Of a stretch of DNA of 20,403 nt, positions 2,183-18,153 are shown one piece after another (the stretch's first letter is position 1; each line of letters opens with the position of its first letter). A program made the position numbers and the translations under genes. The notes beneath the pieces were generated by a model, which was given only the letters and a program-made list of their open reading frames with translations, ran no database searches and was not told the DNA's origin. This stretch comes from Betaproteobacteria bacterium (GTDB lineage Bacteria; Pseudomonadota; Gammaproteobacteria; Burkholderiales; SG8-41): assembly GCA_025356695.1 (NCBI GenBank), contig JANXSE010000363.1:1-20403 (forward strand), read 5' to 3'.

Positions 2183-3448
2183 ATGACAAATGACTTTTCC
2201 AGCACCGCCCGCCGCCGCTTTCTCCAGTTTCTTGCGGCAAGTCCTTATGTGGCATCGGTCGGCGGGGTCGCGACCTTTCTGCAGCAGGATAGCTACGCCC
2301 AGGATATCAAGCAAAGCGGTTTCGCCAGCATCGTGCGCGACCGCATGAGCTATGTCGAAGATCCCAAAGACGCGCTGACGGTGTTTGATTTCGAGGAAAC
2401 GGCGCGCCGCAAAGTGCAGGCCGGCCACTGGTCTTATATGGCGAGCGGCACCGACGACGACGCGACGCTATTCGCCAATCGCGAAGCATTCCGGCACATA
2501 CAGCTGCGCCCGCGCCGGCTGCGCGATGCCACCAAGGTCGATATGCGCGTCGATCTGTTCGGCACCACTTACAACAGCCCGATTTTCACCTGCCCGACGG
2601 GCGGCGAAATGTCTTTCCATAACGAAGGTGAATTGGCCGTCGCACGCGCCGCCAGGGCGCGCGGCACGATGCAGATGTTGTCGACCTCGACTTCGGTCGG
2701 TGTCGAGGATGTGAACAAGGCATTGGGCCGCCCGGTATGGCAGCAACTCTACGCGCCCTCCAACTGGGAAGCCTGCGCGCAATTGTTGAAGCGCATCGAG
2801 GCCTCCGGCGTGTCGGTGATCGCGCTAACCGTCGATAACACTACCGGCCGTTTTAGCGAAACCTATTTCCGCACCCGGCCGCGCGATTTGAAACAGTGCG
2901 AGGCCTGCCATAAAGGCGGGCCGGACGAGGGTCGGCACCGCCCCATGCTTGAGGGCATCGATATGCGCGGCGGACGCCGAACCGACCCGGCGATGGACTG
3001 GAAATTCGTCGCGCGTGTACGCGATTACTGGAAAGGAAAATTCATCATCAAGGGCATCGACTCGGGCGAGGACGCCAAACTCTGTCTCACGCATGGCCTC
3101 GATGGAATACTGGTCTCGAACCACGGCGGGCGCTCGACGGAAACCGGGCGCGGCACCATTGAAGCGCTGCCGGAAGTCGTCGCTGCGGTCGGCGGCAGGA
3201 TACCGGTGTTTCTCGATGGCGGCGTACGCCGCGGCACCGACGTATTCAAGGCGCTGGCGCTCGGCGCGACTGCGGTTGGCATCGGGCGCCCGATGCTGTG
3301 GGGCCTCGGTGCATTCGGACAGGCCGGCGTCGATCGCGTGCTGCAAATCATGCAAGCGGAATTGAAACTGGTGATGGGCAATTGCGGCACGCAAAAAGTT
3401 GCCGACATCAACCGCGATTATGTGACTGCGCGGCACTGGCCGTCATAG
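2183..3448 (+). CDS. Tat-exported FMN-dependent alpha-hydroxy-acid dehydrogenase with an internal CxxCH motif
   Basis: A 421-residue member of the glycolate oxidase / L-lactate dehydrogenase family, which oxidises 2-hydroxy acids with FMN. It opens with a twin-arginine signal (A-R-R-R-F-L-Q at 9-15, probable cleavage SYA|QD near 39), so the enzyme should act in the periplasm. The family active-site residues are all visible: Tyr85 (YMASGTDDD), Tyr190 (QQLYAPSN), Asp218 (LTVDN), Lys290 (IIKGI), and His314 and Arg317 in SNHGGR. The usual Q-L-D after GGR is replaced by S-T-E. The barrel closes with DGGVRRGTDVFKALALGA and GIGRP. In the variable loop before RHRPMLEGID lies C239-E-A-C242-H243, a c-type heme attachment pattern that is not a general feature of this family. 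AGAGAGG at 2171 is the ribosome site. Because it is exported, electrons more likely go to a periplasmic carrier than to O2. The substrate is unknown. Confidence 0.92.
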   Translation: MTNDFSSTARRRFLQFLAASPYVASVGGVATFLQQDSYAQDIKQSGFASIVRDRMSYVEDPKDALTVFDFEETARRKVQAGHWSYMASGTDDDATLFANREAFRHIQLRPRRLRDATKVDMRVDLFGTTYNSPIFTCPTGGEMSFHNEGELAVARAARARGTMQMLSTSTSVGVEDVNKALGRPVWQQLYAPSNWEACAQLLKRIEASGVSVIALTVDNTTGRFSETYFRTRPRDLKQCEACHKGGPDEGRHRPMLEGIDMRGGRRTDPAMDWKFVARVRDYWKGKFIIKGIDSGEDAKLCLTHGLDGILVSNHGGRSTETGRGTIEALPEVVAAVGGRIPVFLDGGVRRGTDVFKALALGATAVGIGRPMLWGLGAFGQAGVDRVLQIMQAELKLVMGNCGTQKVADINRDYVTARHWPS

Positions 3449-5458: not shown

Positions 5459-5830
5459 TTACTTGAACGTTGCGATCAGGTAGGCAATCAGGTCAGCACG
5501 GTCGCGCGCTTCCGGCATTCCCGAATACGGCATGCGGTTGGCGGGAATTTTTTTCTGCGGATCGGCGATATAGGCGTCGAGTTCGCGCTCGTTCCAGACA
5601 ACTCCGCTGCGCTTCATCGCCGGCGAATAACGGAAGTCAGCGGTATCGCCGGCCTTGCGTCCGATCACGCCGAACAGGCTGGGCCCGACGCCCGCGGCCG
5701 CGCCGCGCTCCGGCGCGTGGCAGGCGACGCACTCTTCGTATAACTTCTTGCCGCGTTGCGCGTCGCCGTCGGCGCAAACGATTCCGCTTGCAACGCACAG
5801 CGCAGCAGCGATGATGACTTTTCCTTGCAT
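5459..5830 (-). CDS. Class I mono-heme cytochrome c, electron acceptor of the GMC dehydrogenases
   Basis: A 123-residue exported cytochrome c. The signal peptide MQGKVIIAAALCVASGIVCA is probably cut before DGDAQRGKKLY. The heme site is C34-V-A-C37-H38. The axial Met is most likely Met100 in IPANRMPYSGM, close to the family pattern GxxMxFxG; Met105 is the alternative. The C-terminal helix ADLIAYLIATF is standard. An AGGAGAGG ribosome site precedes the ATG, 19 bases after the stop of the adjacent GMC flavoprotein, so the two are co-transcribed. In the related gluconate/sorbitol dehydrogenase complexes the cytochrome subunit is usually a larger multi-heme protein. Here it is a short, apparently soluble mono-heme carrier, which would move electrons from the flavoproteins to the respiratory chain. 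Confidence 0.93.
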   Translation of the reverse strand: MQGKVIIAAALCVASGIVCADGDAQRGKKLYEECVACHAPERGAAAGVGPSLFGVIGRKAGDTADFRYSPAMKRSGVVWNERELDAYIADPQKKIPANRMPYSGMPEARDRADLIAYLIATFK

Positions 5831-5849
5831 GTGGCCTCTCCTCTTGGTT

Positions 5850-7619
5850 CTATACCAGCATTCCGGGATTTTTGACGTAGCGGTTCTTGATTGCATCCGC
5901 GGTCCAGTACGTGAGCGCGCCGACCAGCCCGGTCGGCTGGTACGCGCTGTTATGCGCGAACGCGCTGGCGCCGACCACGAACAGGTTGTGGCAGTCCCAG
6001 CTTTGCAGGTACTTGTTGACCACGCTGGTTCCGGGATTCGGCCCCATGATCGCGCCGCCGGTGTTGTGCGTGCTCTGGTACGGCACCACCGTCCACGGCT
6101 CGGTGCGCGCAACCGCCGGATTGAGTATGGTCGGGTTCATCGACTTGGCGAGATTGTTGACCATCTGCGCGGCATGCCGGCCCATCTTGTGCTCATTGTC
6201 CTTGTAGTCGAAGGTCATGCGCATCAGCGGCTGGCCGAATACGTTGCGATAAGTCGGGTCGAGATCGAGATAATTGTTGCGGTTCGCCATTACGCTGCCG
6301 CTGGTGCCGATGTTCATGCCTTCCTGGTAGTACTTGGCGGTGGCCGCCTTCCATGCCGTGCCCCACTGCGGTGTGCCGTTGGGGGTCGGCCGGTTGCCGA
6401 TCGGCAGCGAGGTATTGAATCCTGCCGACATGTTGTAGCCGCCGACAAATCCGTGCGGCCCGCGGTCGAACGCCCAGTTGGTGTTGAAATCATCGTTCAG
6501 CGAGCTCGAGCCGCCGGCCGCCATGAACGGATTGAAGTTGCGGTTTTCGAAAAACAGCCGCGCGCTGGCACCGGTCTGATAACAATAGTTCTTGCCGACG
6601 ACGCCGGTCTGGCTGACCGGATCATAAGGCTTGCCGATGCCGGACAGCAGCAGCATATGCACGTTGTTGAGCCCGTACGCGCACAGCAGCACCATGTTCG
6701 CCGGCTGCTCGAACTCCTCGCCGTTGAGTATGTTGGTGTAAGTCACGCCGGTGGCGCGCTTGCCGTCGGACGATTTATTGATCCTGGTTACCCACGAGTG
6801 CGTGCGCAATTCGAAATTCGGATTGCGCATCGCAATCGGAATCACCGTCATGTGCGGACTGCCCTTGGCGTTGGCTTCGCAGCCGAAGCGCTGACAGTAG
6901 CCGCAGTACTGGCAGGCGCCGAACTGCGAGCCGTCGGGATTGGTGTAGGCCCGCGACGCATTTGCGTTCGGTCGCGGAAACGGATGGTAACCGCTGTTCT
7001 TGCATGCTTCGATATAAAGCTCGGCCGACAGTATGTCTTTCAGCGGCGGCAGCGGATATTCATTCTGGCGCGGCGCTTCAAAGGGATTGCCGCCGGGCTG
7101 GATTTGGCCGCGCAGATTGCCGGCCTTGCCCGAGACACCCGCGGTGCGCTCGAACCGGTCGTAATATTTTTCGAGTTCGGCGTAGCTGATGCCCCAGTCC
7201 TGTATCGTCATGTCGTCGGGCACGAATTTCTTGCCGTAGCGTTCTTCATACATCGAACGCACCTTGAACTCCATGTCGGTCCAGCGCCAGGTGCCGCCGC
7301 TCCAGTGCACACCCGAGCCGCCGACGCCATTGCCCGGCAGGAAGGAGCCTAGCTTGCGCATCGGCAAGGCTTCCTGCGACGGGTTGTTACGTATCGTCAA
7401 CGTGTCGCGCGCGGTGTTCATCATCAGGTCGTGGCGGTGCACGAAACGCAGTTCATCGCGTATGCCCGGCAGCGCAAACTCTTTTTTCGTATCGCGCATG
7501 GCGCCGCGCTCGAGCGCGACCACCTTGAGCCCTGCTTCGGTCAGTTCCTTGGCGAGGATGCCGCCGGTCCAGCCAAGGCCGATGATAACGGCATCGACTT
7601 CCTGCATGACTTTTGCCAT
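5850..7619 (-). CDS. GMC-family flavoprotein dehydrogenase large subunit, copy 1 (catalytic Asn replaced by Gln)
   Basis: A 589-residue FAD-dependent GMC oxidoreductase of the gluconate/sorbitol dehydrogenase large-subunit type. The FAD dinucleotide site is VIIGLGWTGG (11-20) with ALERG at 35-39. A Cys cluster C236-x2-C239-x2-C242-x4-C247 may bind an Fe-S cluster. Near the C-terminus H518 (THNTGG, matching the GMC H-x-x-G-T/G motif) is the expected catalytic His. The second active-site residue 43 positions later, Asn in copies 2 and 3, is Gln561 here (codon 5939-5937). There is no signal peptide, so export should depend on the Tat small subunit encoded just upstream (13-base gap). GGAGG precedes the ATG. 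It is followed by the cytochrome c gene. The substrate is probably a sugar, polyol or other alcohol. Gln561 could mean altered or lost catalysis. Confidence 0.92.
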   Translation of the reverse strand: MAKVMQEVDAVIIGLGWTGGILAKELTEAGLKVVALERGAMRDTKKEFALPGIRDELRFVHRHDLMMNTARDTLTIRNNPSQEALPMRKLGSFLPGNGVGGSGVHWSGGTWRWTDMEFKVRSMYEERYGKKFVPDDMTIQDWGISYAELEKYYDRFERTAGVSGKAGNLRGQIQPGGNPFEAPRQNEYPLPPLKDILSAELYIEACKNSGYHPFPRPNANASRAYTNPDGSQFGACQYCGYCQRFGCEANAKGSPHMTVIPIAMRNPNFELRTHSWVTRINKSSDGKRATGVTYTNILNGEEFEQPANMVLLCAYGLNNVHMLLLSGIGKPYDPVSQTGVVGKNYCYQTGASARLFFENRNFNPFMAAGGSSSLNDDFNTNWAFDRGPHGFVGGYNMSAGFNTSLPIGNRPTPNGTPQWGTAWKAATAKYYQEGMNIGTSGSVMANRNNYLDLDPTYRNVFGQPLMRMTFDYKDNEHKMGRHAAQMVNNLAKSMNPTILNPAVARTEPWTVVPYQSTHNTGGAIMGPNPGTSVVNKYLQSWDCHNLFVVGASAFAHNSAYQPTGLVGALTYWTADAIKNRYVKNPGMLV

Positions 7620-7632
7620 TTCGTCCTCCGCC

Positions 7633-8355
7633 TCAGCTCATGTCTGCGATGCTGGTGTAATCGGCCGGGAATTTTTTGTCGCGGTATTTGATGATGTTCT
7701 GCGCGTGCGTTGCAATCACGCCCGGGAAACCGATCATTTTCCAGCCCGCCTTGTCGCGATTACCGCCGTAGATCGGATCGGAGAACATGCCTTCGATCAC
7801 GGTCTGATAAACAGTGCTCCAGAACACGCGCACCGGCAGGCCGTCGCTAAAGGTAATTTTTGCCGACGACAGGCCGACCAGCACTTCCTGACGCTGCTTT
7901 TCATCGATGCGGTCGAAAGTCTTGCCGTAGGTCTTGACGCAATGCGCGTTGGTCGCGGCAATGCCGGCCCGATACAACTCGGCCGGCGTCAGCGGCAATT
8001 GATAGCCCTGGCTCGGTACGCCCGGCTTCCATGGCCCCTGCATATACAAACGGTCGCCCTTGCCCCAACCGCCGGCGAGCGCGCGGTCGATGAAGATGTT
8101 CAGGCCCATATCGGTGCCTTTGGGCGAGTACTCGTCTTTCGGCACCATATGGTCGACCAGTGCTTCAACGAAAGCGGCTTCATCGAGATTGAGATAGGCA
8201 TACCCGGGTGCAACGGTGGCAGCGCCCTGCGCCTGTGCCGTTTGCGACACCGTCACTGCGGCGGTCGCAGCGGCGGCAACCGCACCACCGGCAACTGCGC
8301 TCTTCAAAAAATCGCGGCGGCCGAATCCTTCGTCTTTTTTGTCTTCATGTTTCAT
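7633..8355 (-). CDS. Tat-exported small subunit of a GMC dehydrogenase (gluconate 2-dehydrogenase subunit 3 family)
   Basis: A 240-residue protein with a clear twin-arginine signal: G-R-R-D-F-L-K-S at 12-19, an Ala-rich hydrophobic core, and probable cleavage AQA|QG at 42. The mature part (LDEAAFVEALVDHMVPKDEYSPKGTDMG, FIDRALAGGWGKGDRLYMQGPW and the LYRAGIAATNAHC stretch) matches the small subunit of gluconate 2-dehydrogenase-like complexes. In these complexes this subunit helps fold the flavoprotein and carries it through Tat. I chose ATG 8355 because GGAGG sits 5 bases before it; ATG 8367 would include that ribosome site in its coding sequence. It is the only intact small-subunit gene for three flavoproteins, and a broken copy remains at 10196-10270. 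It lies 57 bases after copy 2 and 13 bases before copy 1. Confidence 0.92.
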   Translation of the reverse strand: MKHEDKKDEGFGRRDFLKSAVAGGAVAAAATAAVTVSQTAQAQGAATVAPGYAYLNLDEAAFVEALVDHMVPKDEYSPKGTDMGLNIFIDRALAGGWGKGDRLYMQGPWKPGVPSQGYQLPLTPAELYRAGIAATNAHCVKTYGKTFDRIDEKQRQEVLVGLSSAKITFSDGLPVRVFWSTVYQTVIEGMFSDPIYGGNRDKAGWKMIGFPGVIATHAQNIIKYRDKKFPADYTSIADMS

Positions 8356-8412
8356 GGCGTCCTCCATGCATGCAGTGGTTTAATTTCAAATGCGAAACAA
8401 TATTGTACGACT

Positions 8413-10182
8413 CTACACCAGTGAGCCGGGGTTTTTCAGATAGCGGTTCTTGATTGCATCGGCCGACCAGTAGGCAAGCGCGCCGACAGGCCCGGTCGGG
8501 TTGTAGGCCGAGTTGTGCGGAAACAGGCTCGCGCCCATCACGAACAAATTGTGGCAGTCCCAGCTCTGGCCGTATTTATTGACTACGCTGTTGCCCGGGT
8601 TCGTCCCCATGATGGTGCCGCCGGTGTTGTGCGTGCTTTGATACGGCACCACCGACCACGGTTCGGTGCGCGCAACCGCCGGGTTCATCATCGTCGGGCT
8701 CAACGACTTGGCAAGATTGTTGATCACATTCGCCGTATGCTGACCCATCTTGTGCTCGTTCGCCTTGTAATCGAAAGTCATGCGCATAAGCGGCAGACCA
8801 AAGGCGTTGCGGTAATTCGGATCGAGCTCGTAATAGTTATAGCGGTTCGCCATCACGCTGCCGCTCGAACTGATGGTCATCGCGCTGTTGTACCACTTGG
8901 CGCTGGCCGCCTTCCATGCACTACCCCACTGCGGCGTGCCAGCGGGCATCGGGCGATAACTCATCGGCCGGCCGTGCGTCATGCCGCCGCCGACACTGAA
9001 ACCGCCGACGAAGCCGTGTGGTCCGCGATCGAAGTTCCAGTCGTAATGAAAATCGTCTGCACCAACATTGAGGCCGCCGGTGCCCATGAACGGATTGAAA
9101 TACTTGCCATCGAAGAACAGCTGCGCCGCCGCACCCGTCTGGTAGCAGTAGTTTTTTCCGACAACACCGGTCTGGCTGACCGGATCATACGGCTTGCCAA
9201 TGCCCGACAACAACATGATGTGCACGTTGTTGATCGCATAAGCAGAGAGCACGACCATACCGGCCGGTTGTTCGAACTCTTCGCCGTTGAGCACATTGGT
9301 GTAGGTCACGCCGGTGACGCGTTTGCCGCTCGGGTCTTTCAATATCTTGGTCACCCATGCGTGCGTGCGCAATTCAAAATTCGGATTGCGCATCGCGATC
9401 GGAATGACCGTGATCAGCGGACTGCCCTTGGCGTTGGTTTCGCAGCCGAAGCGTTCGCAGAAGCCGCAATACGTACAGGCGCCGAATTTTGAACCGTCAG
9501 GATTGGTGTAAGCGCGCGAGGCGTTAGCCACCGGCCGCGGAAACGGGTGATAGCCGGCATTCTTCGCCGCGGTCGTAAACATGTCGCAGGCGAGACTTTG
9601 ATTGAGCGGCGGCAGTGGATACTCTTTTGCGCGCGGTCCTTCGAACGGATTGCCGCCTTCCTGAATCTGGCCCTTGAGGTTGCCGGCCTTGCCCGAGACC
9701 CCCGCGGTATATTCGAATTTCTCATAATACGGCTCGAGCTCGGCGTAGCTGATGCCCCAGTCCTGGATCGTCATGTCGTCCGGGATGAATTTTTTGCCGT
9801 AACGCTCTTCGTAGCGCGAACGGATTTTGAATTCGGTGTCGTTCCAGCGCCAGGTGACGCCGTTCCAGTGCGCGCCGGCACCGCCAACCCCTTCGCCCGG
9901 CAGGAACGAACCCATACGGCGCATCGGCAACGCGTCCTGCGACGGATTGTTGCGGATGGTCAGCGTATCGCGCTGGGTGTTCATCATCAGATCGTTGCGC
10001 GATGAATATCGCAGTTCGTCGCGGATGCGCGGCAACGAAAAATCCTGCTCGGGCGTGCGCATCGCGCCGCGCTCGAGCGCCACAACTTTCATTCCGGCTT
10101 CGCTCAGTTCCTTGGCAAGAATGCCGCCGGTCCAGCCAAGCCCGATGATGACGACATCTACTTCTTTGAGAACTTTTGCCAT
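8413..10182 (-). CDS. GMC-family flavoprotein dehydrogenase large subunit, copy 2
   Basis: A 589-residue paralogue, colinear with copies 1 and 3 through the conserved landmarks. The FAD site is VIIGLGWTGG (11-20), the Cys cluster C236/C239/C242/C247 is intact (CTYCGFCERFGC), and the active-site pair His518 and Asn561 (YNPTG) is complete. Many segments are closer to copy 3 than to copy 1, for example NQSLACDMF, CGFCERFGCE and WYNSAMTISSSGSVMANRYNY, so copies 2 and 3 probably split more recently. There is no signal peptide, so co-export with the Tat small subunit encoded next downstream is expected. GGAG lies 7 bases before the ATG. The 13 bases between this start and the stop of the broken small-subunit remnant equal the gap before copy 1, which marks a duplicated small-large unit. 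A periplasmic sugar/alcohol dehydrogenase role is inferred. Confidence 0.93.
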   Translation of the reverse strand: MAKVLKEVDVVIIGLGWTGGILAKELSEAGMKVVALERGAMRTPEQDFSLPRIRDELRYSSRNDLMMNTQRDTLTIRNNPSQDALPMRRMGSFLPGEGVGGAGAHWNGVTWRWNDTEFKIRSRYEERYGKKFIPDDMTIQDWGISYAELEPYYEKFEYTAGVSGKAGNLKGQIQEGGNPFEGPRAKEYPLPPLNQSLACDMFTTAAKNAGYHPFPRPVANASRAYTNPDGSKFGACTYCGFCERFGCETNAKGSPLITVIPIAMRNPNFELRTHAWVTKILKDPSGKRVTGVTYTNVLNGEEFEQPAGMVVLSAYAINNVHIMLLSGIGKPYDPVSQTGVVGKNYCYQTGAAAQLFFDGKYFNPFMGTGGLNVGADDFHYDWNFDRGPHGFVGGFSVGGGMTHGRPMSYRPMPAGTPQWGSAWKAASAKWYNSAMTISSSGSVMANRYNYYELDPNYRNAFGLPLMRMTFDYKANEHKMGQHTANVINNLAKSLSPTMMNPAVARTEPWSVVPYQSTHNTGGTIMGTNPGNSVVNKYGQSWDCHNLFVMGASLFPHNSAYNPTGPVGALAYWSADAIKNRYLKNPGSLV

Positions 10183-10195
10183 GATGATCTCCGTC

Positions 10196-10270
10196 TTAGC
10201 TCATGTAAGTGATGCTGAAGTAATTAACCGGAAATTTCTGTCTCGATATTTGACGATGTGTTGCGCGGCA
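10196..10270 (-). pseudogene. Decayed 3' end of a second small-subunit gene (gluconate 2-dehydrogenase subunit 3 family)
   Basis: Reading leftward from 10266, one frame gives AQHIVKYRDR. After a single-base deletion near 10232 the next frame gives KFPVNYFSITYMS and a stop. The intact small subunit ends AQNIIKYRDK then KFPADYTSIADMS and a stop. By hand alignment about three quarters of 72 bases match, with one gap. The stop lies 13 bases before flavoprotein copy 2, exactly as the intact gene's stop lies 13 bases before copy 1. Everything upstream of this tail is deleted; homology begins within about 4 bases of the copy 3 stop codon. It makes no protein. It shows that the array once had a small subunit between copies 3 and 2. 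Confidence 0.85.
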
Positions 10271-12040
10271 CTACACCAGCAAGCCGGAATTTTTCAGATA
10301 CTTGTTTTTGATCGCGTCGGCCGCCCAGTAGGTCAGCGCACCGACCGGTCCGGTCGGGTTGTAGGCCGAGTTATGTGAAAACAGGCTCGCGCCCATTACG
10401 AACAGATTCTCGCAGTCCCAGCTCTGGCAATATTTGTTGACAGCGCTGTTGCCCGGGTTGGTGCCCATGATCGTGCCGCCGGTGTTGTGCGTGCTTTGAT
10501 ACGGCACTACCGACCACGGTTCGGTGCGCGCGACGGCCGGATTCATCGTTGTCGGGTTCATCGATTTGGCAAGGTCGTTGACGATTTGCGCCGCATGCTG
10601 CCCGACCTTGTGCTCATTCGCCTTGTAATCGAAGGTCATGCGCATCAGCGGTTGCCCGAAGGGATTGCGATAGGTCGGGTCGAGATCAAAATAGTTATAG
10701 CGGTTCGCCATCACGCTGCCGCTTGAACTGATGGTCATCGCACTGTTGTACCACTTGGCAGATGCCGCCTTCCATTGCGTGCCCCACTGCGGCGTGCCCG
10801 CGGGCATCGGCCGATAGGCGATCGGCCGGCCATGAAACATGCCGCCGAAGAAATGGGTTCCGCCGACGTAACCGAGCGGGCCGCGGTCGTAATCCCAGTT
10901 GGTGTAAAAATCGTCGCAGGTTACGTTGAGCCCGCCGGTCGCCATGAACGGGTTGAAGTTTCTGCCCTCGAAGAACAAGGTGGCGCCGGCCGCCGTCTGA
11001 TAGCAATAGTTCTTGCCGATGACGCCGGTCTGGTTGACCGGATCATAGGGCTTACCGATGCCTGACAGCAGCATCAGATGCACGTTGTTGAACGTATAGG
11101 CGCACAGCATTACCATGCGGGCCGGTTGCTCGAACTCTTCGCCGTTCAACACGTTCGTATAAGTAACACCAGTAACACGCTTGCCACTCGAATCCTTGAT
11201 GACCCTGGTCACCCACGCATGCGTGCGCAGCTCGAAATTCGGATTGCGCAACGCAATCGGAATCACCGTCGTCAGCGGACTGCCCTTGGCATTAGCCTCG
11301 CAACCGAAGCGCTCGCAGAAGCCGCAGTACTCGCAGGCGCCGAGCTGCGAACCGTCCGGGTTGACGTACGCGCGCGATGCATTTGCCGTCGGCCGCGGAA
11401 ACGGGTGATAGCCGGCGTTTTTCGCCGCCGTCGAAAACATGTCGCAGGCAAGACTCTGGTTGAGCGGCGGCAGTGGATAGTCGCGCGCGCGCGGCGCCTC
11501 GAACGGATTGCCGCCCGCCTGAATCTGGCCTTTGATATTGCCTGCCTTGCCTGAGACACCCGCGGTGTATTCGAATTTGTCGTAATACGGTTCGAGTTCG
11601 GCGTAGCTGATGCCCCAGTCCTGGATCGTCATGTCGTCCGGGATATATTTTTTGCCGTAGCGCTCTTCATACATGGAGCGGATGCGCAATTCCATGTCGG
11701 TCCAGCGCCAGGTCTGACCGTTCCAGTGCAATCCCGCACCGCCAACGCCTTCGCCGGGAATAAAGGAGCCTAAACGCCGCATCGGCAACGCCTCCTGCGA
11801 CGGATTGTTGCGAATGGTGAGCGTATCGCGCGCGACGTTCTGCGCCATTGCGTTGTGCGAGGTAAAGCGCAATTCGTCGCGGATCAGCGGCACCGTGAAA
11901 TCTTTTTCCGCCGCGCGCATCGCGCCGCGCTCAAGTGCGACGACTTTGAGGCCCGCAGCCGACAATTCTTTCGCCAGAATGCCGCCGGTCCAACCCAGAC
12001 CAACGATCAATACGTCGACTTCCGGCAACTTCCTGGCCAT
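10271..12040 (-). CDS. GMC-family flavoprotein dehydrogenase large subunit, copy 3 (first gene of the array)
   Basis: A 589-residue paralogue when started at ATG 12040, where GGAGGAACA gives a strong ribosome site and the length matches copies 1 and 2 exactly; an upstream in-frame start would add 15 unconserved residues. The FAD site LIVGLGWTGG (11-20), Cys cluster C236/C239/C242/C247 (CEYCGFCERFGC), His518 and Asn561 are all present. Its 345-420 region differs strongly from the others (extra Cys in LNVTCDDFY, and GGTHFFGGMFHG). This part of GMC proteins helps shape the substrate pocket, so a different substrate is likely. It has no signal peptide and its own adjacent small subunit is lost, so it presumably depends on the intact one encoded 1.9 kb downstream. 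It is first behind the predicted promoter at 12122-12150. Function inferred: periplasmic alcohol/sugar oxidation. Confidence 0.93.
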   Translation of the reverse strand: MARKLPEVDVLIVGLGWTGGILAKELSAAGLKVVALERGAMRAAEKDFTVPLIRDELRFTSHNAMAQNVARDTLTIRNNPSQEALPMRRLGSFIPGEGVGGAGLHWNGQTWRWTDMELRIRSMYEERYGKKYIPDDMTIQDWGISYAELEPYYDKFEYTAGVSGKAGNIKGQIQAGGNPFEAPRARDYPLPPLNQSLACDMFSTAAKNAGYHPFPRPTANASRAYVNPDGSQLGACEYCGFCERFGCEANAKGSPLTTVIPIALRNPNFELRTHAWVTRVIKDSSGKRVTGVTYTNVLNGEEFEQPARMVMLCAYTFNNVHLMLLSGIGKPYDPVNQTGVIGKNYCYQTAAGATLFFEGRNFNPFMATGGLNVTCDDFYTNWDYDRGPLGYVGGTHFFGGMFHGRPIAYRPMPAGTPQWGTQWKAASAKWYNSAMTISSSGSVMANRYNYFDLDPTYRNPFGQPLMRMTFDYKANEHKVGQHAAQIVNDLAKSMNPTTMNPAVARTEPWSVVPYQSTHNTGGTIMGTNPGNSAVNKYCQSWDCENLFVMGASLFSHNSAYNPTGPVGALTYWAADAIKNKYLKNSGLLV

Positions 12041-12086: not shown

Positions 12087-12110
12087 GGATCCGCTTGCGG
12101 GATCCTTTTT
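12087..12110 (+). terminator. Hairpin with T-run on the + strand, inside the leader of the GMC operon
   Basis: GGATCCGC (12087-12094), a TT loop and GCGGGATCC (12097-12105, one bulged G) are followed by TTTTT and more T-rich sequence. It would act as an intrinsic terminator only for rightward transcription, where no + strand gene is seen. On the - strand it lies in the roughly 75-base untranslated leader of the GMC operon, without a following T-run. It may stop antisense transcription or structure the leader. Confidence 0.4.
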
Positions 12111-12163: not shown

Positions 12164-15100
12164 TTAGTGAAAATCCCGACTCAATATCGAAAGTTGCCCC
12201 AGCAACGGGCTGTGATCAGTGAGCCGTCCGGCAATCAGATGCACCACCTCGCCGTCGCGCTCGAGGATGCCGTGCACGCCGAGCAAACGGGCGCCCAGCA
12301 GTTCACGGCGCTGGCGCTCGCCGACATCGCGCCACACCACCACACTCACGTTGCCGGTTTCGTCTTCGAGCGTGACGAAGACGACCCCCGAAGCGGTGTC
12401 GGGGCGCTGGCGCCCGGTAACGATGCCGGCGGCATGCACCGGCCGGCCGTGCGGCATATTGCGCAATTCGGCGGCGGTGACAAAACGCAGGCGTTTGAGG
12501 CGCTCGCGCAACAACGCCAGCGGATGACGGCCGAGCGTCAAACCGGTACTGGCGTAATCGGCGACCAGTTCCTCGCCTTCCGACGCTGGCGCGAACGCCG
12601 GCGCGGTTTCGCGCAGCGGCGCTTGCGCCAGCAAGGGTGTGGCACGTTCAACGCCGACGACCTGCCAGTGCGCGTCGCGGCGGTGCGCCGCAAGCTGACG
12701 CAAGGCGCCGGCCGCCGCCAGCAATTTCAACTCATACCGGTTGAGCGAGGCGCGGCGCGCCAGATCGACCGTCGACTCGAACGCGCGCTGCGCACGCGCG
12801 TCGACTATACGCTCTGCCGCCGCAGCGATAAAACCATGCACCACGCGCAACCCGAGCCGTACTGCCGGCGGCTCGCCTTCGAGTGTGCAATCCCAGTCAC
12901 TGACAACAATATCGACCGCGCGCACCTCAACACCGTGGCGGCGTGCGTCCTGCACGAGCTGCGACGGCGCGTAAAAACCCATCGGCTGGCTGTTGAGCAG
13001 TGCAGCGAGAAACGCCGCCGGCTCGTGATGCTTGATCCACGCCGAGATGTAGACGAGCAGGGCGAAACTCGCCGCGTGCGATTCCGGAAAACCATATTCG
13101 CCAAAACCGAGAATCTGGCGATATATCTGTTCGGCAAATTCGCGCGTGTAGTGGCGTGCCAGCATGCCGGAGACCAGGCGCTCTTCAAGATGTTCAAGCC
13201 CGCCTTTGCGTTTCCATGCCGCCATCGAGCGGCGCAGATGATCGGACTCACCGGGCGTGAAACCGGCCGCCACCACCGCGAGCTGCATGACCTGTTCCTG
13301 AAAAATCGGCACGCCGAGCGTGCGCTTCAACACACTACTCACTGCTTCGCTTGGATAAGACACCGGCTCTATGCCCTGGCGCCGGCGCAGATAGGGATGC
13401 ACCATACCGCCCTGGATCGGCCCCGGCCGCACGATCGCAACCTCGATGACGAGGTCGTAAAATTCCGCGGGCCGCAAGCGCGGCAGCATACTCATCTGCG
13501 CGCGCGATTCGATCTGGAATACGCCAATCGTATCGGCACGCTGTATCATTTTATAAACTGCAGCATCTTCGGCCGGCACGTCAGCCATGGCGAACGGCAC
13601 ACCGCGGCGCTGACTGATCATATCGAAAGCGCGCCGGATCGCCGACAGCATGCCGAGGGCCAGCACATCAACCTTGAGGAGCCCCAGCGCATCGAGATCG
13701 TCCTTGTCCCACTGAATCACGGAACGATCGGGCATCGCCGCGTTTTCGATCGGCACCAGCCGCGACAACAGGCCGCGCGCAAACACGAAGCCGCCAGTGT
13801 GCTGCGACAGATGGCGCGGAAAGCCGATCAATATGCGCGCCAGTTCGACCAGCTGCTGCACACGCATGCTCTCCGGATCGAAACCCGCTTCGCTTAATCG
13901 CTGCGTCAACACCTCTCTGCTATCCCACCAGGCAAACGATTTACCGATATGTTCGACCTGTGCAAGATCGAAACCCAGTGCCTTGCCCACATCGCGGATG
14001 GCACTGCGCGTGCGATAGCTGATGACGGTAGCGGTTAGCGCAGCGCGATCGCGGCCGTATTTCCTGTAGAGATACTGGATTACCTCTTCGCGCCGCTGAT
14101 GTTCAAAATCGACGTCAATATCCGGCGGCTCGTTGCGCTCGCGCGAAATGAAACGCTCGAACAGCACGCTCATGCGCGACGGATCGACCTCGGTGATGCC
14201 GAGCGCGTAACAAACCGTCGAATTGGCGGCCGAGCCGCGGCCCTGGCAGAGAATATTGTTGGCACGTGCAAACGCAACGATGTCGTAGACGGTCAGAAAG
14301 TACGGCTCGTAGCCAAGCTCAGCGATCAGCCTGAGTTCGCTCTCGACTTGCGCGCGCACATCGTGTAGTGCGCCGCGCGGATAACGCCGGCGCAACCCCT
14401 CTTCGGTCAGTGCGCGCAGATACGATGCCGGCGTGTGCCCTGCCGGCACCACCTCCTCCGGATATTCGTAACGCAGGGAATCGAGCGAAAAATCGCAACG
14501 CGCGGCAATGTGCACGGTTTCGGCCAGCAATTCCGGCGGGTAAATCTGCGCCAGCCGCATGCGCATACGCAAATGGCGCTCGGCGTTCGCATGCAAAGCA
14601 TATTGCGCCCCGGCTACCGGTGTGCCGATGCGGATTGCCGTCAATGTATCCTGCAGCGGGCGGCGCGAACGCACGTGCATGTGCACGTCCCCCGCCGCCA
14701 CCAGCGGCAGATGCGCGGCAGCGCCGAGCTCGCGCAATTGCGTCAGCCGCGCGCGGTCGTCGGGCCCGCACAACAGTTCTACTGCCAGCCAGACGCGGCC
14801 GGAAAAATATTCGCGCAGACGTTGCGCGTGCGTGAGCTCTGTTATGGCGTCGATCCGTACCACCGGCGGAATTAATATACTCAAACACCCGCCTGCCAGA
14901 CCAAGATCGTCCCACTCGAGGCAATACTCGCCTTTCGCGCTGCGGCGGCGCGCCGTGGTAATCAGTTGCGAGAGATTACCGTAGGCGTCGCGATCGGTCG
15001 CCAGCAGAACGATCTTCGGCCCGCGTTCAAGCTGAAACTCCGAGCCGATAATCAGTTTCAGCTTGTGCTGTTTGGCCGCGACGTGGGCGCGCACTACACC

Positions 15101-15250
15101 GGCGAACGAACATTCATCGGTAATCGCCAGCGCCGCGTAACCGAGCGCGGCCGCACGTTCAACGAGTTCTTCCGGATGCGAAGCGCCGCGCAAAAAACTG
15201 AAATTGCTCACGCAATGCAGTTCGGCATAGTCGGGTAATGCGGCAAACAC
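12164..15250 (-). CDS. dnaE2: Error-prone DNA polymerase III alpha subunit DnaE2 (ImuC)
   Basis: A 1028-residue C-family DNA polymerase of the DnaE2/ImuC type, which performs damage-induced mutagenic synthesis with ImuA and ImuB. An N-terminal PHP domain begins [23 protein letters not shown]. The polymerase acids are seen as PDIDVDF (Asp379 and Asp381) and [10 protein letters not shown] (Asp528). Helix-hairpin-helix and OB regions follow ([32 protein letters not shown] near 960). It ends SRDFH, a hallmark of DnaE2. The start is GTG 15250; no clear ribosome site is seen. It lies 118 bases after imuB, separated by a REP-like hairpin, and is probably the last gene of lexA-imuA-imuB-dnaE2. LexA control is expected from the lexA promoter. 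A pair of GTGTT half-sites 10 bases apart lies just before the start (15252-15266), but they are direct repeats, not a dyad. Confidence 0.95.
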
Positions 15251-15298
15251 CGGAAAACACTTTGCAAAGGCGGCGCGGGAAAATCAAAACAGCTCAGC

Positions 15299-15357
15299 AG
15301 CCCGGTCGGAATGAAACGTAATTAGCTCCCTGAATTACGCTACGCTCCTTCCGGGCT
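15299..15357 (-). repeat. REP-like hairpin element in the imuB-dnaE2 gap
   Basis: Outer arms AGCCCGG (15299-15305) and CCGGGCT (15351-15357) and inner arms CGTAATT (15317-15323) and AATTACG (15333-15339) form a long interrupted stem with a 9-base loop. Read on the - strand it starts CGTAGCCCGGAAGGAGCGTAGCG, a close match to the GTAGCCCGGATG-GAGCGCAGCG repeats scattered between genes in many proteobacteria and linked to REP-associated tyrosine transposases (recalled, not searched). No transposase is nearby. It may stabilise or cut the mRNA between imuB and dnaE2. Confidence 0.65.
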
Positions 15358-15368
15358 ACGTCTGCCAA

Positions 15369-16796
15369 CTAACCAAAGATACCGTGTAAATACCAGCCGC
15401 CGGGCCGGCGCCGCTCGCGGTACACCCACACGGTTGAACGCTCGGCGGTCTGCGCGACGAAGTAATCGCGTTTGACGTCGCCGCCGTCCCACCAGCCGGA
15501 CTCGATGCGCTCAGGCCCGGCGACAATCGCCAGCGGGCCGTTCTCGCTATAAGGTTTTTCCGCCACCTGTTTGAGCGGGCGCGGTTCGCGCAGCAGCCAC
15601 AACGGGCGCGGACGCGGCGTCACCTGCAGTGGACGCGCACCGGGTGCGGCGCGCTGCCAGGCGTGCTCGGGACGATGTTCTGCGCGCGGTGAAAGCGACT
15701 GCACCGCTTCGCTACCAAGCCGCGCGCTCAAGCGTTCGATCAGCTTCGCCCAATCGGCGGAACGATCGGCAATCTCGGCGAACAGCGTTTTGTTTTCGCC
15801 GGCAAGCACGAGTATTTCATCGGCTTCAAGCGCCAACTGCACAACCGGCGCGGCAAGCTTGAGCGCCGCAAGTTGTTCGCGCACCACGGCGATGAAGCGG
15901 CCCGGGTCGCGTGTCGGCGTCGCCAGTCCGGTTTCAAGCACGGTCGGCGCACGATCCTCATGCGTCAGCAGCAGCTTGAAATGTTGCACGCTGCCGCAGC
16001 GACCGCCGAGATAACCTGCTAACTGTGTGAGCATGCGCTGCACCGAGAACAGCAGGGCTTCGGCATGTTCCACTTTGGTGCCGAGATCAAGTTTCGAGGA
16101 AAATTTTTCCGCCGGCGTGAAAAAACACCGCGCCTCGGGCCGCGTGCCGAGTGCGCGATCGAGCTGTTCGAGAAATTGCGGACCGAAACGGCGCGTCGCA
16201 CCGTCACGCGGCAGTTTCAATGCGGCACCGACAGTTTTGACGCCGATCGCAGCCAGCGTCTCCAGCGTTTTGGTATCGCAGTCGAGCGCCTTCACCGGCA
16301 GCGGCGCAATTTCGGATTCGATCATGCGTTTGCAACTGACAATTTTTTCGCTGCCGGCGCGCGCCAGCAGCCATGCCGCCGCCACCGTCGGCGCACAGGC
16401 AAGCGACAACGTGTAGCCCATGTCGGCAGCGCCGCGCCGGATCATCGCCAATATGGGTTTGATGCCGCCGAAGAGTTTGAGGCTGCCTTCGATTTCGAGC
16501 AGCAGCCCGGACGGCGACTGCAATGAGACACCGGACGTGAACTGCAGCGCCCACGCTGCAAGTTGATCGAGTGCAATACGCTCTGCTGTCGCATCGCGCT
16601 GACGATAAACAAGATCTGGCACCAGCGCACAGGCCGCGGCAATACTCATGCCGATGCGCGCGCCACGCACCGCCGCGCGCTCGTTGCTCACCAGCACGCG
16701 CCCGCCCTCGGCGACCGCATGCGCTTCAGTTGACGCTGACGCCTGCGCGAATGCTTCGAGCGGCAAGTGCGGGAAATGCAATGCGATCCATAACAT
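15369..16796 (-). CDS. imuB: Mutasome protein ImuB (inactive Y-family polymerase-like hub)
   Basis: A 475-residue ImuB. It starts MLWIALHFPHLPLEAF, the usual ImuB opening, with GGAG 6 bases upstream; longer in-frame starts would include that site. It has the Y-family polymerase layout but lacks the catalytic acids. The first motif (normally with Asp) reads LWIALHFP, and the S-x-D-E-A motif is replaced by LLLEIEGSLKLFGG. The C-terminal part has RPRPLWLLREPRPL and the conserved ending RDYFVAQT, VWVYRERRRPGGWYLHGIFG. In this system ImuB does not polymerise. It links the beta clamp, ImuA and DnaE2 at stalled forks. I could not identify a clear beta-clamp pentapeptide. Its start lies inside the imuA 3' end (71-base overlap), so the two are coupled. 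Confidence 0.94.
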   Translation of the reverse strand: MLWIALHFPHLPLEAFAQASASTEAHAVAEGGRVLVSNERAAVRGARIGMSIAAACALVPDLVYRQRDATAERIALDQLAAWALQFTSGVSLQSPSGLLLEIEGSLKLFGGIKPILAMIRRGAADMGYTLSLACAPTVAAAWLLARAGSEKIVSCKRMIESEIAPLPVKALDCDTKTLETLAAIGVKTVGAALKLPRDGATRRFGPQFLEQLDRALGTRPEARCFFTPAEKFSSKLDLGTKVEHAEALLFSVQRMLTQLAGYLGGRCGSVQHFKLLLTHEDRAPTVLETGLATPTRDPGRFIAVVREQLAALKLAAPVVQLALEADEILVLAGENKTLFAEIADRSADWAKLIERLSARLGSEAVQSLSPRAEHRPEHAWQRAAPGARPLQVTPRPRPLWLLREPRPLKQVAEKPYSENGPLAIVAGPERIESGWWDGGDVKRDYFVAQTAERSTVWVYRERRRPGGWYLHGIFG

Positions 16797-17454
16797 GGCT
16801 TGCTCCATTTGGTTCAATAAAAGTTTTTTGTTCAACCGGCACCTGCGGCGTCAGCATGATCGGGCTGCTCAACACGCCGCCGCGCCGTTTTAAAATACGC
16901 GCCGCCAGCCCGCCGTTTTGCGTGTAGAGATTCAGGCGCAACGCCGCCGGCGTCGATTCCGCCGCACAGCGCGGCGGACGAAACAACACAGCAATGGTTG
17001 AACTACCCTCAGCGGCAAGTTGCAGGCGACGCAGTTCGGTGTAGTCAATACGTTCGGGCCACGCCAGCACCGCACCGCAGGTCTGTGAGCGCAGCGCCTG
17101 CTCGAACGCCCATAGCGTTTCACGCGGCGAACGCGTGCGTATCATCAGGAGATGCGAGAGATCGATGCCGGCCGCAGCCAGCGCCGGTGCGTACGGCAGA
17201 TAGGGCGGCGCGATCCACGCCAGCCAGCGCCCCTGCGCTGCGAGATTGGCGAGCGCATGACCCAGCACACGCAACTCACCGATGCCTTCGTACTGCGCAA
17301 GAATTTCCGTCAGCGCCGCGGTCGGCCAGCCGCCCCCCGGCAACTCGGCATCAAGCCCGGCGTAACCGCTCGGCACGCTCGGCGTCGTCACACGGCCCAA
17401 CTGATGGCCGCGCCAGATCGCCGGATGCGACAACAATGCAGACAATGCATTCAT
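16726..17454 (-). CDS. imuA: Translesion synthesis accessory protein ImuA
   Basis: A 242-residue ImuA, a RecA-like accessory factor of the ImuA-ImuB-DnaE2 mutasome. It has the family landmarks HPAIWRGHQLGR (10-21), GYAGLDAELPGGGWPTAALTEIL (a degenerate Walker A-like region), WLAWIAPPYLPYAPALAAAGIDLSHLL and LLMIRTRSPRETLWAFEQALRS. I chose ATG 17454, which shares one base with the lexA stop (TGATG); an upstream start would overlap lexA by 11 codons without conserved sequence. The tight overlap with lexA in front and imuB behind shows a coupled operon in which LexA represses its own operon partners. The last 23 codons overlap imuB. Confidence 0.92.
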   Translation of the reverse strand: MNALSALLSHPAIWRGHQLGRVTTPSVPSGYAGLDAELPGGGWPTAALTEILAQYEGIGELRVLGHALANLAAQGRWLAWIAPPYLPYAPALAAAGIDLSHLLMIRTRSPRETLWAFEQALRSQTCGAVLAWPERIDYTELRRLQLAAEGSSTIAVLFRPPRCAAESTPAALRLNLYTQNGGLAARILKRRGGVLSSPIMLTPQVPVEQKTFIEPNGASHVMDRIAFPALAARSIRAGVSVN

Positions 17455-18077
17455 CAGGTATGACCGGCGCGGATTACACCGACGCAAATGCCTTCGATCG
17501 TGAGTTCATCACGACGCAGGTCCACCACGATCGGTTTGAACGCAGGGTTCTCGGCGATGAGTTCAACCTGATGACCGTGCCGCTGAAAACGCTTGACCGT
17601 GACTTCGTCGTACAGCCGCGCCACCACAATCTGGCCGGCGCGCGCTTCTTGCGTTTTATGCACTGCAATGTAATCGCCGTCGAGTATGGCAGCGTCGCGC
17701 ATGCTCATGCCGCGCACCTTCAACAGATAATCGGCATGCGGCTTGAACATCGCCGGATCGACGCGCACCTGCCGTTCGATATTTTCTTCGCTCATGATCG
17801 GGCTGCCGGCGGCGACACGCCCGATCAGCGGCAGCTCAGCCTGATAACCGGCGGCATGCGGATCAGCCTGTTTGACGCGAATGCCGCGCGAAGCGCTGTC
17901 GATGCGTTCGATCGCACCTTTGCGCGCGAGGGCCAGCAGATGATTGCGTGCCGCCGTGGCCGAACGAAAACCGAAGTTCGCCGCAATCTCGGCCTGCGTC
18001 GGCGGATAACCGTTGGCGCGTATGCGTTCCTGAATGAAACGCAGCAGCTGGTTCTGGCGGGAGGTCAGTTCTTCCAT
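17454..18077 (-). CDS. lexA: LexA repressor, mutasome-linked type with an altered recognition helix
   Basis: A 207-residue LexA when started at ATG 18077 ([12 protein letters not shown]), the normal length. An upstream start would run through the promoter and operator. The winged-helix domain (1-65) has [34 protein letters not shown]. coli LexA has SPNAAEEHL at the operator-reading helix, while this protein has SATAARNHL, so residues 41, 44 and 45, important for CTGT contacts, differ. The autocleavage parts are intact: the Ala90-Gly91 bond (GRVAAGSPI), Ser125 (GMSMRD) and Lys141 (AVHKTQ). RecA-stimulated self-cleavage should thus be normal while DNA specificity differs. It is first of lexA-imuA-imuB-dnaE2. 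This organism may carry a second, general lexA elsewhere, as some pseudomonads do (inference). Confidence 0.95.
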
Positions 18078-18098
18078 GGAGCACCGGGTGATTAATCG

Positions 18099-18122
18099 AC
18101 TAGTGTTTTTATTAACACCAGT
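18099..18122. promoter_or_regulatory. Candidate LexA operator of non-E. coli type
   Basis: A 24-base dyad of form ACTnGTGTT-N6-AACACnAGT, with 9-base arms and one mismatched pair. It overlaps the expected transcription start of lexA and lies 21 bases before the ATG. No CTGT-N8-ACAG box is present. The position is ideal for autorepression. The assignment to LexA rests on position, symmetry and the changed LexA recognition helix. Confidence 0.6.
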
Positions 18123-18125
18123 GTG

Positions 18126-18153
18126 ATTATACACACCAAACAGCGCCCGGCAA
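18126..18153 (-). promoter_or_regulatory. Predicted sigma70 promoter of the lexA-imuA-imuB-dnaE2 operon
   Basis: On the - strand, -35 TTGCCG (18153-18148), a 16-base spacer and a perfect -10 TATAAT (18131-18126). The -10 is itself framed by GTGTG and CACAC (18121-18136), a second small dyad touching the larger operator. The start would be near 18118, inside the operator. The promoter lies in the 84 bases after the SRAP gene stop. Confidence 0.65.

What the first reader, a model, noticed from the sequence alone, without database searches (positions are those of the whole stretch)
5459..12040. Three GMC dehydrogenases share one Tat small subunit and one mono-heme cytochrome
Three 589-residue flavoproteins without signal peptides lie in one array with only one intact small subunit and one short cytochrome c. 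Known relatives form fixed large-small-cytochrome sets. Here the layout suggests a mix-and-match periplasmic oxidation hub: several substrate-specific large subunits compete for one export/folding partner and feed one electron carrier. This is the best candidate for an undescribed system in the window.
Basis: inference. Interest (0 to 1): 0.7.

Follow-up and report, generated by a model that had tools for sequence, protein, structure and literature searches.

The report
Three dehydrogenases sharing one export partner
A bacterial gene cluster encodes three related oxidising enzymes but only one of the helper proteins thought to carry such enzymes out of the cell's interior; a leftover scrap of a second helper gene and similar clusters in relatives suggest that helpers were lost and one now serves several enzymes.

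Summary
The array is real. In transcription order: A (12040-10271), B (10182-8413), Tat small subunit S (8355-7633), C (7619-5850), mono-heme cytochrome c (5830-5459). A, B and C are GMC flavoproteins of the fructose-dehydrogenase/FAD-GDH fold, 75-82% identical. Of 20 near loci with visible flanks, 12 are S-L-c, 6 carry 2-3 open L per single S, one has a frame-broken second L, and one keeps B and S while C has decayed. In 16 relatives' genomes 49 of 50 S hits sit directly before an L, so no spare S is seen for the extra copies; the window's own genome is not held. A, B, C and S show purifying selection. Sharing of S is the best explanation (about 0.7); co-export, competition, substrates and the shared cytochrome are untested. 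A published co-expression experiment shows one small subunit helping large subunits of other species. A new variant of a known kind.

The parts
10271..12040 (-). A: GMC flavoprotein large subunit, 589 aa, ATG at 12040
   Evidence: nearest relative in the tree L005_L2, 83%
10189..10267 (-). psi-S': fossil of the 3' end of a second small-subunit gene plus its spacer to B, about 80 bp, with a one-base gap that breaks the frame
   Evidence: local score 68 to the array's own S; maximum 28 (own S) and 34 (best of five S genes) in 2000 shuffles each
8413..10182 (-). B: GMC flavoprotein large subunit, 589 aa; directly upstream of S in all four loci of the syntenic group (WIN, L001, L005, L019; frame-broken in L019)
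   Evidence: fold
7633..8355 (-). S: Tat hitchhiker small subunit, PF13618, 240 aa (alternative start 8367, 244 aa)
5850..7619 (-). C: GMC flavoprotein large subunit, 589 aa, 13 nt after S; Gln561 where most relatives and fructose dehydrogenase have Asn
5459..5830 (-). c: mono-heme cytochrome c, 123 aa, N-terminal hydrophobic leader, one CxxCH

Best explanation
A, B and C are three catalytic (alpha) subunits of periplasmic GMC dehydrogenases of the FAD-GDH/fructose-dehydrogenase type. Each folds with FAD and a Cys-bound Fe-S cluster in the cytoplasm, binds the single Tat-tagged small subunit S, is carried through Tat as an S-L pair, oxidises its substrate outside and passes electrons FAD -> Fe-S -> mono-heme cytochrome c. 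The array arose by tandem accumulation of S-L units; surplus S copies were deleted because one S could serve all copies, and a fragment of one remains between A and B. Shown: gene content, the fossil, recurrence in relatives, absence of spare S in 16 relatives' genomes, purifying selection, fold of B. Inferred: binding of S to A and B, export, electron transfer to c, separate substrates, the reason for the loss.
For: Families and fold: (top nine PDB hits are fructose dehydrogenase and BcGDH gamma-alpha entries, TM 0.72-0.82). S fossil; weaker fossil between A and C in L005, score 35, 0 of 2000 shuffles reach it, shuffle maximum 33. Intact S beside relatives of A/B in L111 and L112, i.e. the state before loss. 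Recurrence: 6 of 20 near loci with 2-3 open L per S, plus L019 (frame-broken) and L001. No spare S: 49 of 50 S hits in 16 genomes have an L within 900 bp downstream, one of these being L001's decayed C. L001: B, S and c open, C matched only over residues 441-520 (with a TGA) and 556-589. B-S adjacency in 4 of 4 syntenic loci while the gene after S differs. dN/dS 0.14 (A), 0.07-0.11 (B), 0.12-0.18 (C), 0.06-0.12 (S). Precedent: co-expression of the Rhizobium GIN611 small subunit raised soluble expression of large subunits from other genera (PMC4650693, sections 9 and 16 read).
Against: The window's own genome is not held, so a second S elsewhere cannot be excluded. The eight loci with extra or decayed L are drafts (7 of 8 titled MAG). 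In the wider family some L genes (48-53% identical) stand without an S in the fetched stretch, so an L may not always need an adjacent S. No interface test could be made: the disulfide known from BcGDH has no covarying counterpart here. The L005 fossil is short and only just beats its shuffles, and the other L-L gaps tested (L002, L008) show no S remnant. S-L pairing in the 60 further relatives was not tallied; three of those genomes have more L than S or no S (G020, G022, G028).
Confidence: 0.68

Rival explanations
1. S serves one or two of the flavoproteins; the other(s) work without S, in the cytoplasm or with another carrier, or are on the way to decay.
For: L genes without a nearby S occur in the wider family; C has decayed in L001 and B is frame-broken in L019, so copies can be lost; C of the window has Gln561.
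Against: A, B and C are all open, and the compared pairs show dN/dS 0.07-0.18. Among distinct L sequences with the CxxCxxCx4C motif, as A, B and C have, 89 of 93 had an S in the locus and the other 4 lie at contig edges; the 10 without S all lack the second Cys. This count is biased by how the loci were fetched.
Confidence: 0.18
2. Each extra flavoprotein pairs with its own small subunit encoded elsewhere in the genome.
For: L111 and L112 show relatives of A/B with their own S on separate contigs; the window's genome is not held.
Against: In 16 relatives' genomes no well-scoring S lacks its own adjacent L; G004, with a 3 L: 1 S array, has only one other S, and it sits next to its own L. Draft incompleteness weakens this.
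Confidence: 0.1
3. Plain gene dosage: the three copies do the same reaction, and the array is an amplification without functional meaning.
For: High identity (75-82%), same length, same strand with short gaps.
Against: A and B each have their own closest relative in L005 (support 100/98 and 100/99), so the copies predate these genomes; 37 positions are fixed within but differ between the A, B and C groups of 2, 3 and 3 sequences; A/B and C fall in two separate clades (100/100).
Confidence: 0.15

Closest known systems
FAD-dependent glucose dehydrogenase of Burkholderia cepacia (BcGDH gamma-alpha-beta; PDB 6a2u, 8grj)
   Same: GMC catalytic subunit, Cys-rich Fe-S loop, small subunit described as a Tat hitchhiker (passages of PMC6719666 and PMC9727119 read; fold)
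   Different: One small subunit per catalytic subunit and a three-heme cytochrome; here one S for three L and a mono-heme cytochrome. The four-Cys spacing differs (CxxCxxCx4C), and no disulfide partner could be supported.
Fructose dehydrogenase of Gluconobacter japonicus (PDB 7w2j, 8jej and variants)
   Same: Best PDB match by sequence (for C) and by fold (for B); its active-site His and Asn map to 518 and 561 (alignments)
   Different: Window C has Gln561. Fructose dehydrogenase has a hitchhiker small subunit and a three-heme subunit (passage of PMC9727119); here a mono-heme one and an unequal L:S ratio.
FAD glycoside oxidoreductases (Rhizobium sp. GIN611, Agrobacterium C58, Stenotrophomonas, Sphingobacterium)
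   Same: GMC enzyme with a Tat-type partner; one small subunit co-expressed with large subunits of other genera raised their soluble expression (sections 9 and 16 of PMC4650693 read)
   Different: There the sharing is artificial (co-expression in E. coli) and the natural order is L then S, one each. Whether A, B and C belong to that subfamily, and 3-OH activity, were not tested.
Gluconobacter gluconate and 2-ketogluconate dehydrogenase clusters
   Same: S-L-c gene order, Tat signal on S and none on L (passages of PMC9692623 read)
   Different: Several complete clusters, each with its own S, and larger cytochromes (435-476 aa).

Membership tests
Hitchhiker-type FAD-dependent dehydrogenase complexes (BcGDH / FDH type) | GMC-fold catalytic subunit | tested here: met
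   Domains in A, B and C; fold modelled for B only
Hitchhiker-type FAD-dependent dehydrogenase complexes (BcGDH / FDH type) | Catalytic subunit without its own signal peptide | tested here: met
   By eye: N-termini such as MAKVLKEVDVVIIG run straight into the FAD motif; no signal-peptide program at hand
Hitchhiker-type FAD-dependent dehydrogenase complexes (BcGDH / FDH type) | Tat-tagged PF13618 small subunit | tested here: met
   twin Arg in 120 of 120 listed sequences, the window's own included
Hitchhiker-type FAD-dependent dehydrogenase complexes (BcGDH / FDH type) | Cys ligands of the Fe-S cluster | tested here: met
   C236, C239, C242 and C247 invariant in the 29 rows of A2, A, B and C among them. 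The cluster itself cannot be tested
Hitchhiker-type FAD-dependent dehydrogenase complexes (BcGDH / FDH type) | His/Asn catalytic pair | tested here: inconclusive
   A and B keep H518 and N561; C keeps H518 but has Gln561, shared with L006, L127 and L128
Hitchhiker-type FAD-dependent dehydrogenase complexes (BcGDH / FDH type) | Three-heme cytochrome c subunit | tested here: not met
   One CxxCH in a 123-aa protein; frames with three CxxCH follow most of the ~50% identical relatives
Hitchhiker-type FAD-dependent dehydrogenase complexes (BcGDH / FDH type) | One small subunit per catalytic subunit | tested here: not met
   3 L: 1 S plus one S fossil
Glycoside 3-oxidoreductases (FAD-GO / glucoside 3-dehydrogenase) | Oxidation of the 3-OH of a glycoside | not testable with these tools
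   No substrate evidence in the window

The most novel reading that the evidence does not exclude
S is a swappable export ticket: in this lineage the one-to-one bond of small and large subunit has dissolved, S copies are discarded repeatedly, S can pass from its downstream client (C) to an upstream one (B, as in L001), and the set of exported oxidases depends on how several flavoproteins divide one S.
Probability: 0.3. Interest if true: 0.62.

Novelty: new variant of a known kind. Interest (0 to 1): 0.42.

Why it matters
If one Tat hitchhiker serves several catalytic subunits in nature, hitchhiker complexes can gain new periplasmic oxidations by adding only a catalytic gene. It could also explain stray GMC large subunits in genomes and give a way to export enzyme variants, for example for biosensors. 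The fossils and the decayed C of L001 make the order of events directly testable.

Tried and rejected

Disulfide idea: I supposed that C239 of L pairs with the conserved Cys of S, after BcGDH C213-C152. Rejected: that S Cys is present in 51 of 77 S beside CCCC-type L and in 13 of 13 beside CGCC-type L, so it does not covary.

L genes without S as proof that L needs no S: not conclusive. All 10 (8 inside contigs, 2 at edges) lack the second Cys; the same CGCC type also occurs with an adjacent S (14 cases).

Partner swap at C: the window's C groups with L006, L127 and L128 (98/92), not with the C of L005/L019, but a tree holding it with those two is not rejected (p-AU 0.117). Left as a hint. It also means that the C rows of the dN/dS test may not be strict orthologs.

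Region conservation: invariant share 0.51-0.61 in four stretches that I took to face S, 0.42 in 374-447. The mapping from BcGDH was approximate; too weak to use.

Other gaps: the L-L gaps of L002 and L008 and the c-L gaps of L002, L003, L006, L008 and L009 show no S remnant (scores 14-28, within the range of shuffles), so a fossil is seen in 2 of 4 L-L gaps tested.

Survey of 60 relatives of G004: 26 of 60 have an L at E <= 1e-150 and 26 of 60 a PF13618 hit. The L limit hides distant L, so I did not count pairs there; I looked only at G020, G022, G028, G037, G055 and the pairs fetched.

Substrate from neighbours: Bug receptors, CMD proteins and a thioesterase give no clear substrate. Promoter- and terminator-like sites were fewer than in shuffles (1 against 2.6; 5 against 8.7).

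Literature: seven searches (three of them empty, in the others only the top 13-20 titles and abstract starts were seen) showed no report of one natural small subunit serving several large subunits. The library holds open-licence papers only. Passages of PMC8630023 were seen and not used.

Rows dropped: trees used L sequences over 430 aa only (42 rows, 43 rows, there also without L025 and L113-L117). The lists leave out rows weaker than about 1e-14.

Full report
ANATOMY. On the - strand, in transcription order, lie A (12040-10271), B (10182-8413), S (8355-7633), C (7619-5850) and a mono-heme cytochrome c (5830-5459). Gaps are 88, 57, 13 and 19 bases. A, B and C have 589 residues each, are 75-82% identical, and carry GMC_oxred_N and GMC_oxred_C domains. 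S is PF13618 with an RRDFLK Tat motif; the twin Arg is present in the 120 listed sequences, the window's own included. The cytochrome has one CxxCH. A model of B built on 29 sequences (mean pLDDT 86.8) is closest to fructose dehydrogenase and the BcGDH gamma-alpha complex. The window appears to be a whole 20,403-base contig, and no genome is held for it. In the outputs, WIN_L1, WIN_L2 and WIN_L3 stand for A, B and C.

A FOSSIL SMALL SUBUNIT. The 88 bases between A and B match the 3' end of S plus the S-C spacer over about 80 bp, score 68, with a one-base gap. The best of 2000 shuffles reached 28 against this S and 34 against five S genes. Hence, by inference, B once followed its own S. In locus L005 (order B-S-A-C-c) the A-C gap holds a shorter match to the end of S (30 bp, score 35; none of 2000 shuffles reached it, maximum 33). 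The L-L gaps of L002 and L008 and the c-L gaps of five loci show none.

RELATIVES. One scan of genome contigs gave 106 relatives, the best 80 kept. Among those of at least 70% identity, 20 loci have an S with at least 2 kb of contig on either side of it (L001, L002, L003, L005, L006, L008-L012, L014, L016-L019, L021-L024, L028; chosen by eye). Of these 20, 12 are S-L-c. Six have more open L than S: L002 and L008 S-L-L-c-L; L003, L006 and L009 S-L-c-L; L005 L-S-L-L-c. L019 has a second L broken in frame, and L001 an open L, S and a decayed L. All eight are drafts, seven of them titled MAG; the titles of L001 and L002 (Bordetella parapertussis) and L019 (Chitinophaga pinensis) look doubtful and I do not rely on them. 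The more distant relatives (about 50%) are mostly S-L followed by a frame with three CxxCH.

ONE LOCUS IN FOUR STATES. WIN, L001, L005 and L019 share the neighbourhood DnaE2-array-Bug; WIN, L001 and L005 also have PaaI-CMD1 beyond it. Their arrays: A-(psiS')-B-S-C-c; B-S-psiC-c; B-S-A-(psiS')-C-c; B(broken)-S-C-c. B stands directly before S in 4 of 4, whereas what follows S changes. In L001, C is matched only over residues 441-520 (with a TGA) and 556-589, while B, S and c are open: S has outlived its downstream partner beside B. This is the best single piece of evidence that B uses S; a misassembly of that draft is possible.

NO SPARE SMALL SUBUNITS. In the genomes of 16 near loci PF13618 gave 50 hits, and B gave 67 L places of at least 1200 bases. 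49 of 50 S hits have an L within 900 bases downstream; one of these is L001's decayed C, and some L are cut by contig ends. The exception is a weak partial hit (G013:C45, 23 bits). 21 of 67 L lack an S directly upstream: 11 in the arrays named above and 10 elsewhere, some of these at contig ends. G004 (L005) has 3 L in the array, one S there, and one other S with its own L. A wider set of 60 relatives was searched (26 of 60 with L, 26 of 60 with PF13618), but pairs were not counted there.

DESCENT AND SELECTION. In the careful tree A and B fall in a 16-row clade and C in a 27-row clade (both 100/100); A pairs with L005's second L (100/98) and B with L001, L005 and L019 (100/99). L111 and L112, in the A/B clade, still have their own S, and L112 its own cytochrome. 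The S genes of WIN, L001, L005 and L019 form one group (SH-aLRT 99). Pairwise dN/dS (NG86, dS 0.7-1.3) is 0.14 for A, 0.07-0.11 for B, 0.12-0.18 for C, 0.06-0.12 for S, and 0.04-0.08 for the L after c in L002, L006, L008 and L009. 37 positions are fixed within and differ between the A, B and C groups (2, 3 and 3 sequences). C of the window has Gln at the position of an active-site Asn (N1190 of FDH, by the 8xcn title and its alignment), shared with L006, L127 and L128; the effect is unknown.

MECHANISM. For BcGDH (passages of PMC6719666 and PMC9727119 read) the small subunit is described as a hitchhiker for Tat that is essential for functional expression, and electrons pass from FAD over a 3Fe-4S cluster to heme c. 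For glycoside oxidoreductases (PMC4650693, sections 9 and 16 read), co-expression of one small subunit with large subunits of other genera raised their soluble expression; the text says three enzymes but names two strains. By inference A, B and C are each exported with S and reduce the one cytochrome. Competition, stoichiometry and substrates are open.

AGAINST. Relatives at 48-53% include L genes with no S in the fetched stretch and no visible signal (8 inside contigs, 2 near edges), so S-free L may exist; all have G or S for C239. G022 has three such L and one S that shows no Tat motif and no L in the 8.2 kb fetched around it. G028 has one L and no PF13618 hit. The disulfide test failed. The drafts are incomplete.

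VERDICT. The reading as an undescribed hub is too strong: this looks like a condensed tandem array of a known kind of complex in which small-subunit copies were lost and the remaining one is probably shared.

Noticed in passing
window 2183-3448 (+): FMN-dependent dehydrogenase family protein (PF01070) with a Tat-like N-terminus (ARRRFLQF, by eye), unusual for this family as far as I recall.
   Followed up: no
window 12164-18134 (-): DnaE2-, ImuB-, ImuA- and LexA-like genes directly upstream of the array, like the usual SOS mutagenesis cassette (names recalled, not scanned); the order recurs in L001 and L005.
   Followed up: partly
L114, L116-L120, L122-L125: GMC large subunits (48-53% identical) without a small subunit in the fetched stretch (in L125 none near it) and without a visible signal peptide; all have G or S in place of the second Cys of the Fe-S loop.
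   Followed up: partly
L121:4562-5248: PF13618 small subunit without visible Tat motif and without an L in the 8.2 kb fetched, in a genome (G022) with three solitary L genes.
   Followed up: partly
window 5850-7619 (-), residue 561: Gln in place of an active-site Asn in copy C, shared with L006, L127 and L128; a possible subgroup with altered chemistry.
   Followed up: partly
window 12087-12105: GGATCC...GGATCC hairpin in the leader of A, 46 bases before its ATG; role unknown.
   Followed up: no
L011:11783-13280: Three successive frames with one CxxCH each after a single L; only the first was matched by the window's cytochrome.
   Followed up: no
L001, L019: Draft genomes titled Bordetella parapertussis and Chitinophaga pinensis hold the same locus as the window, most genes 71-91% identical; at least one title must be wrong.
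   Followed up: no
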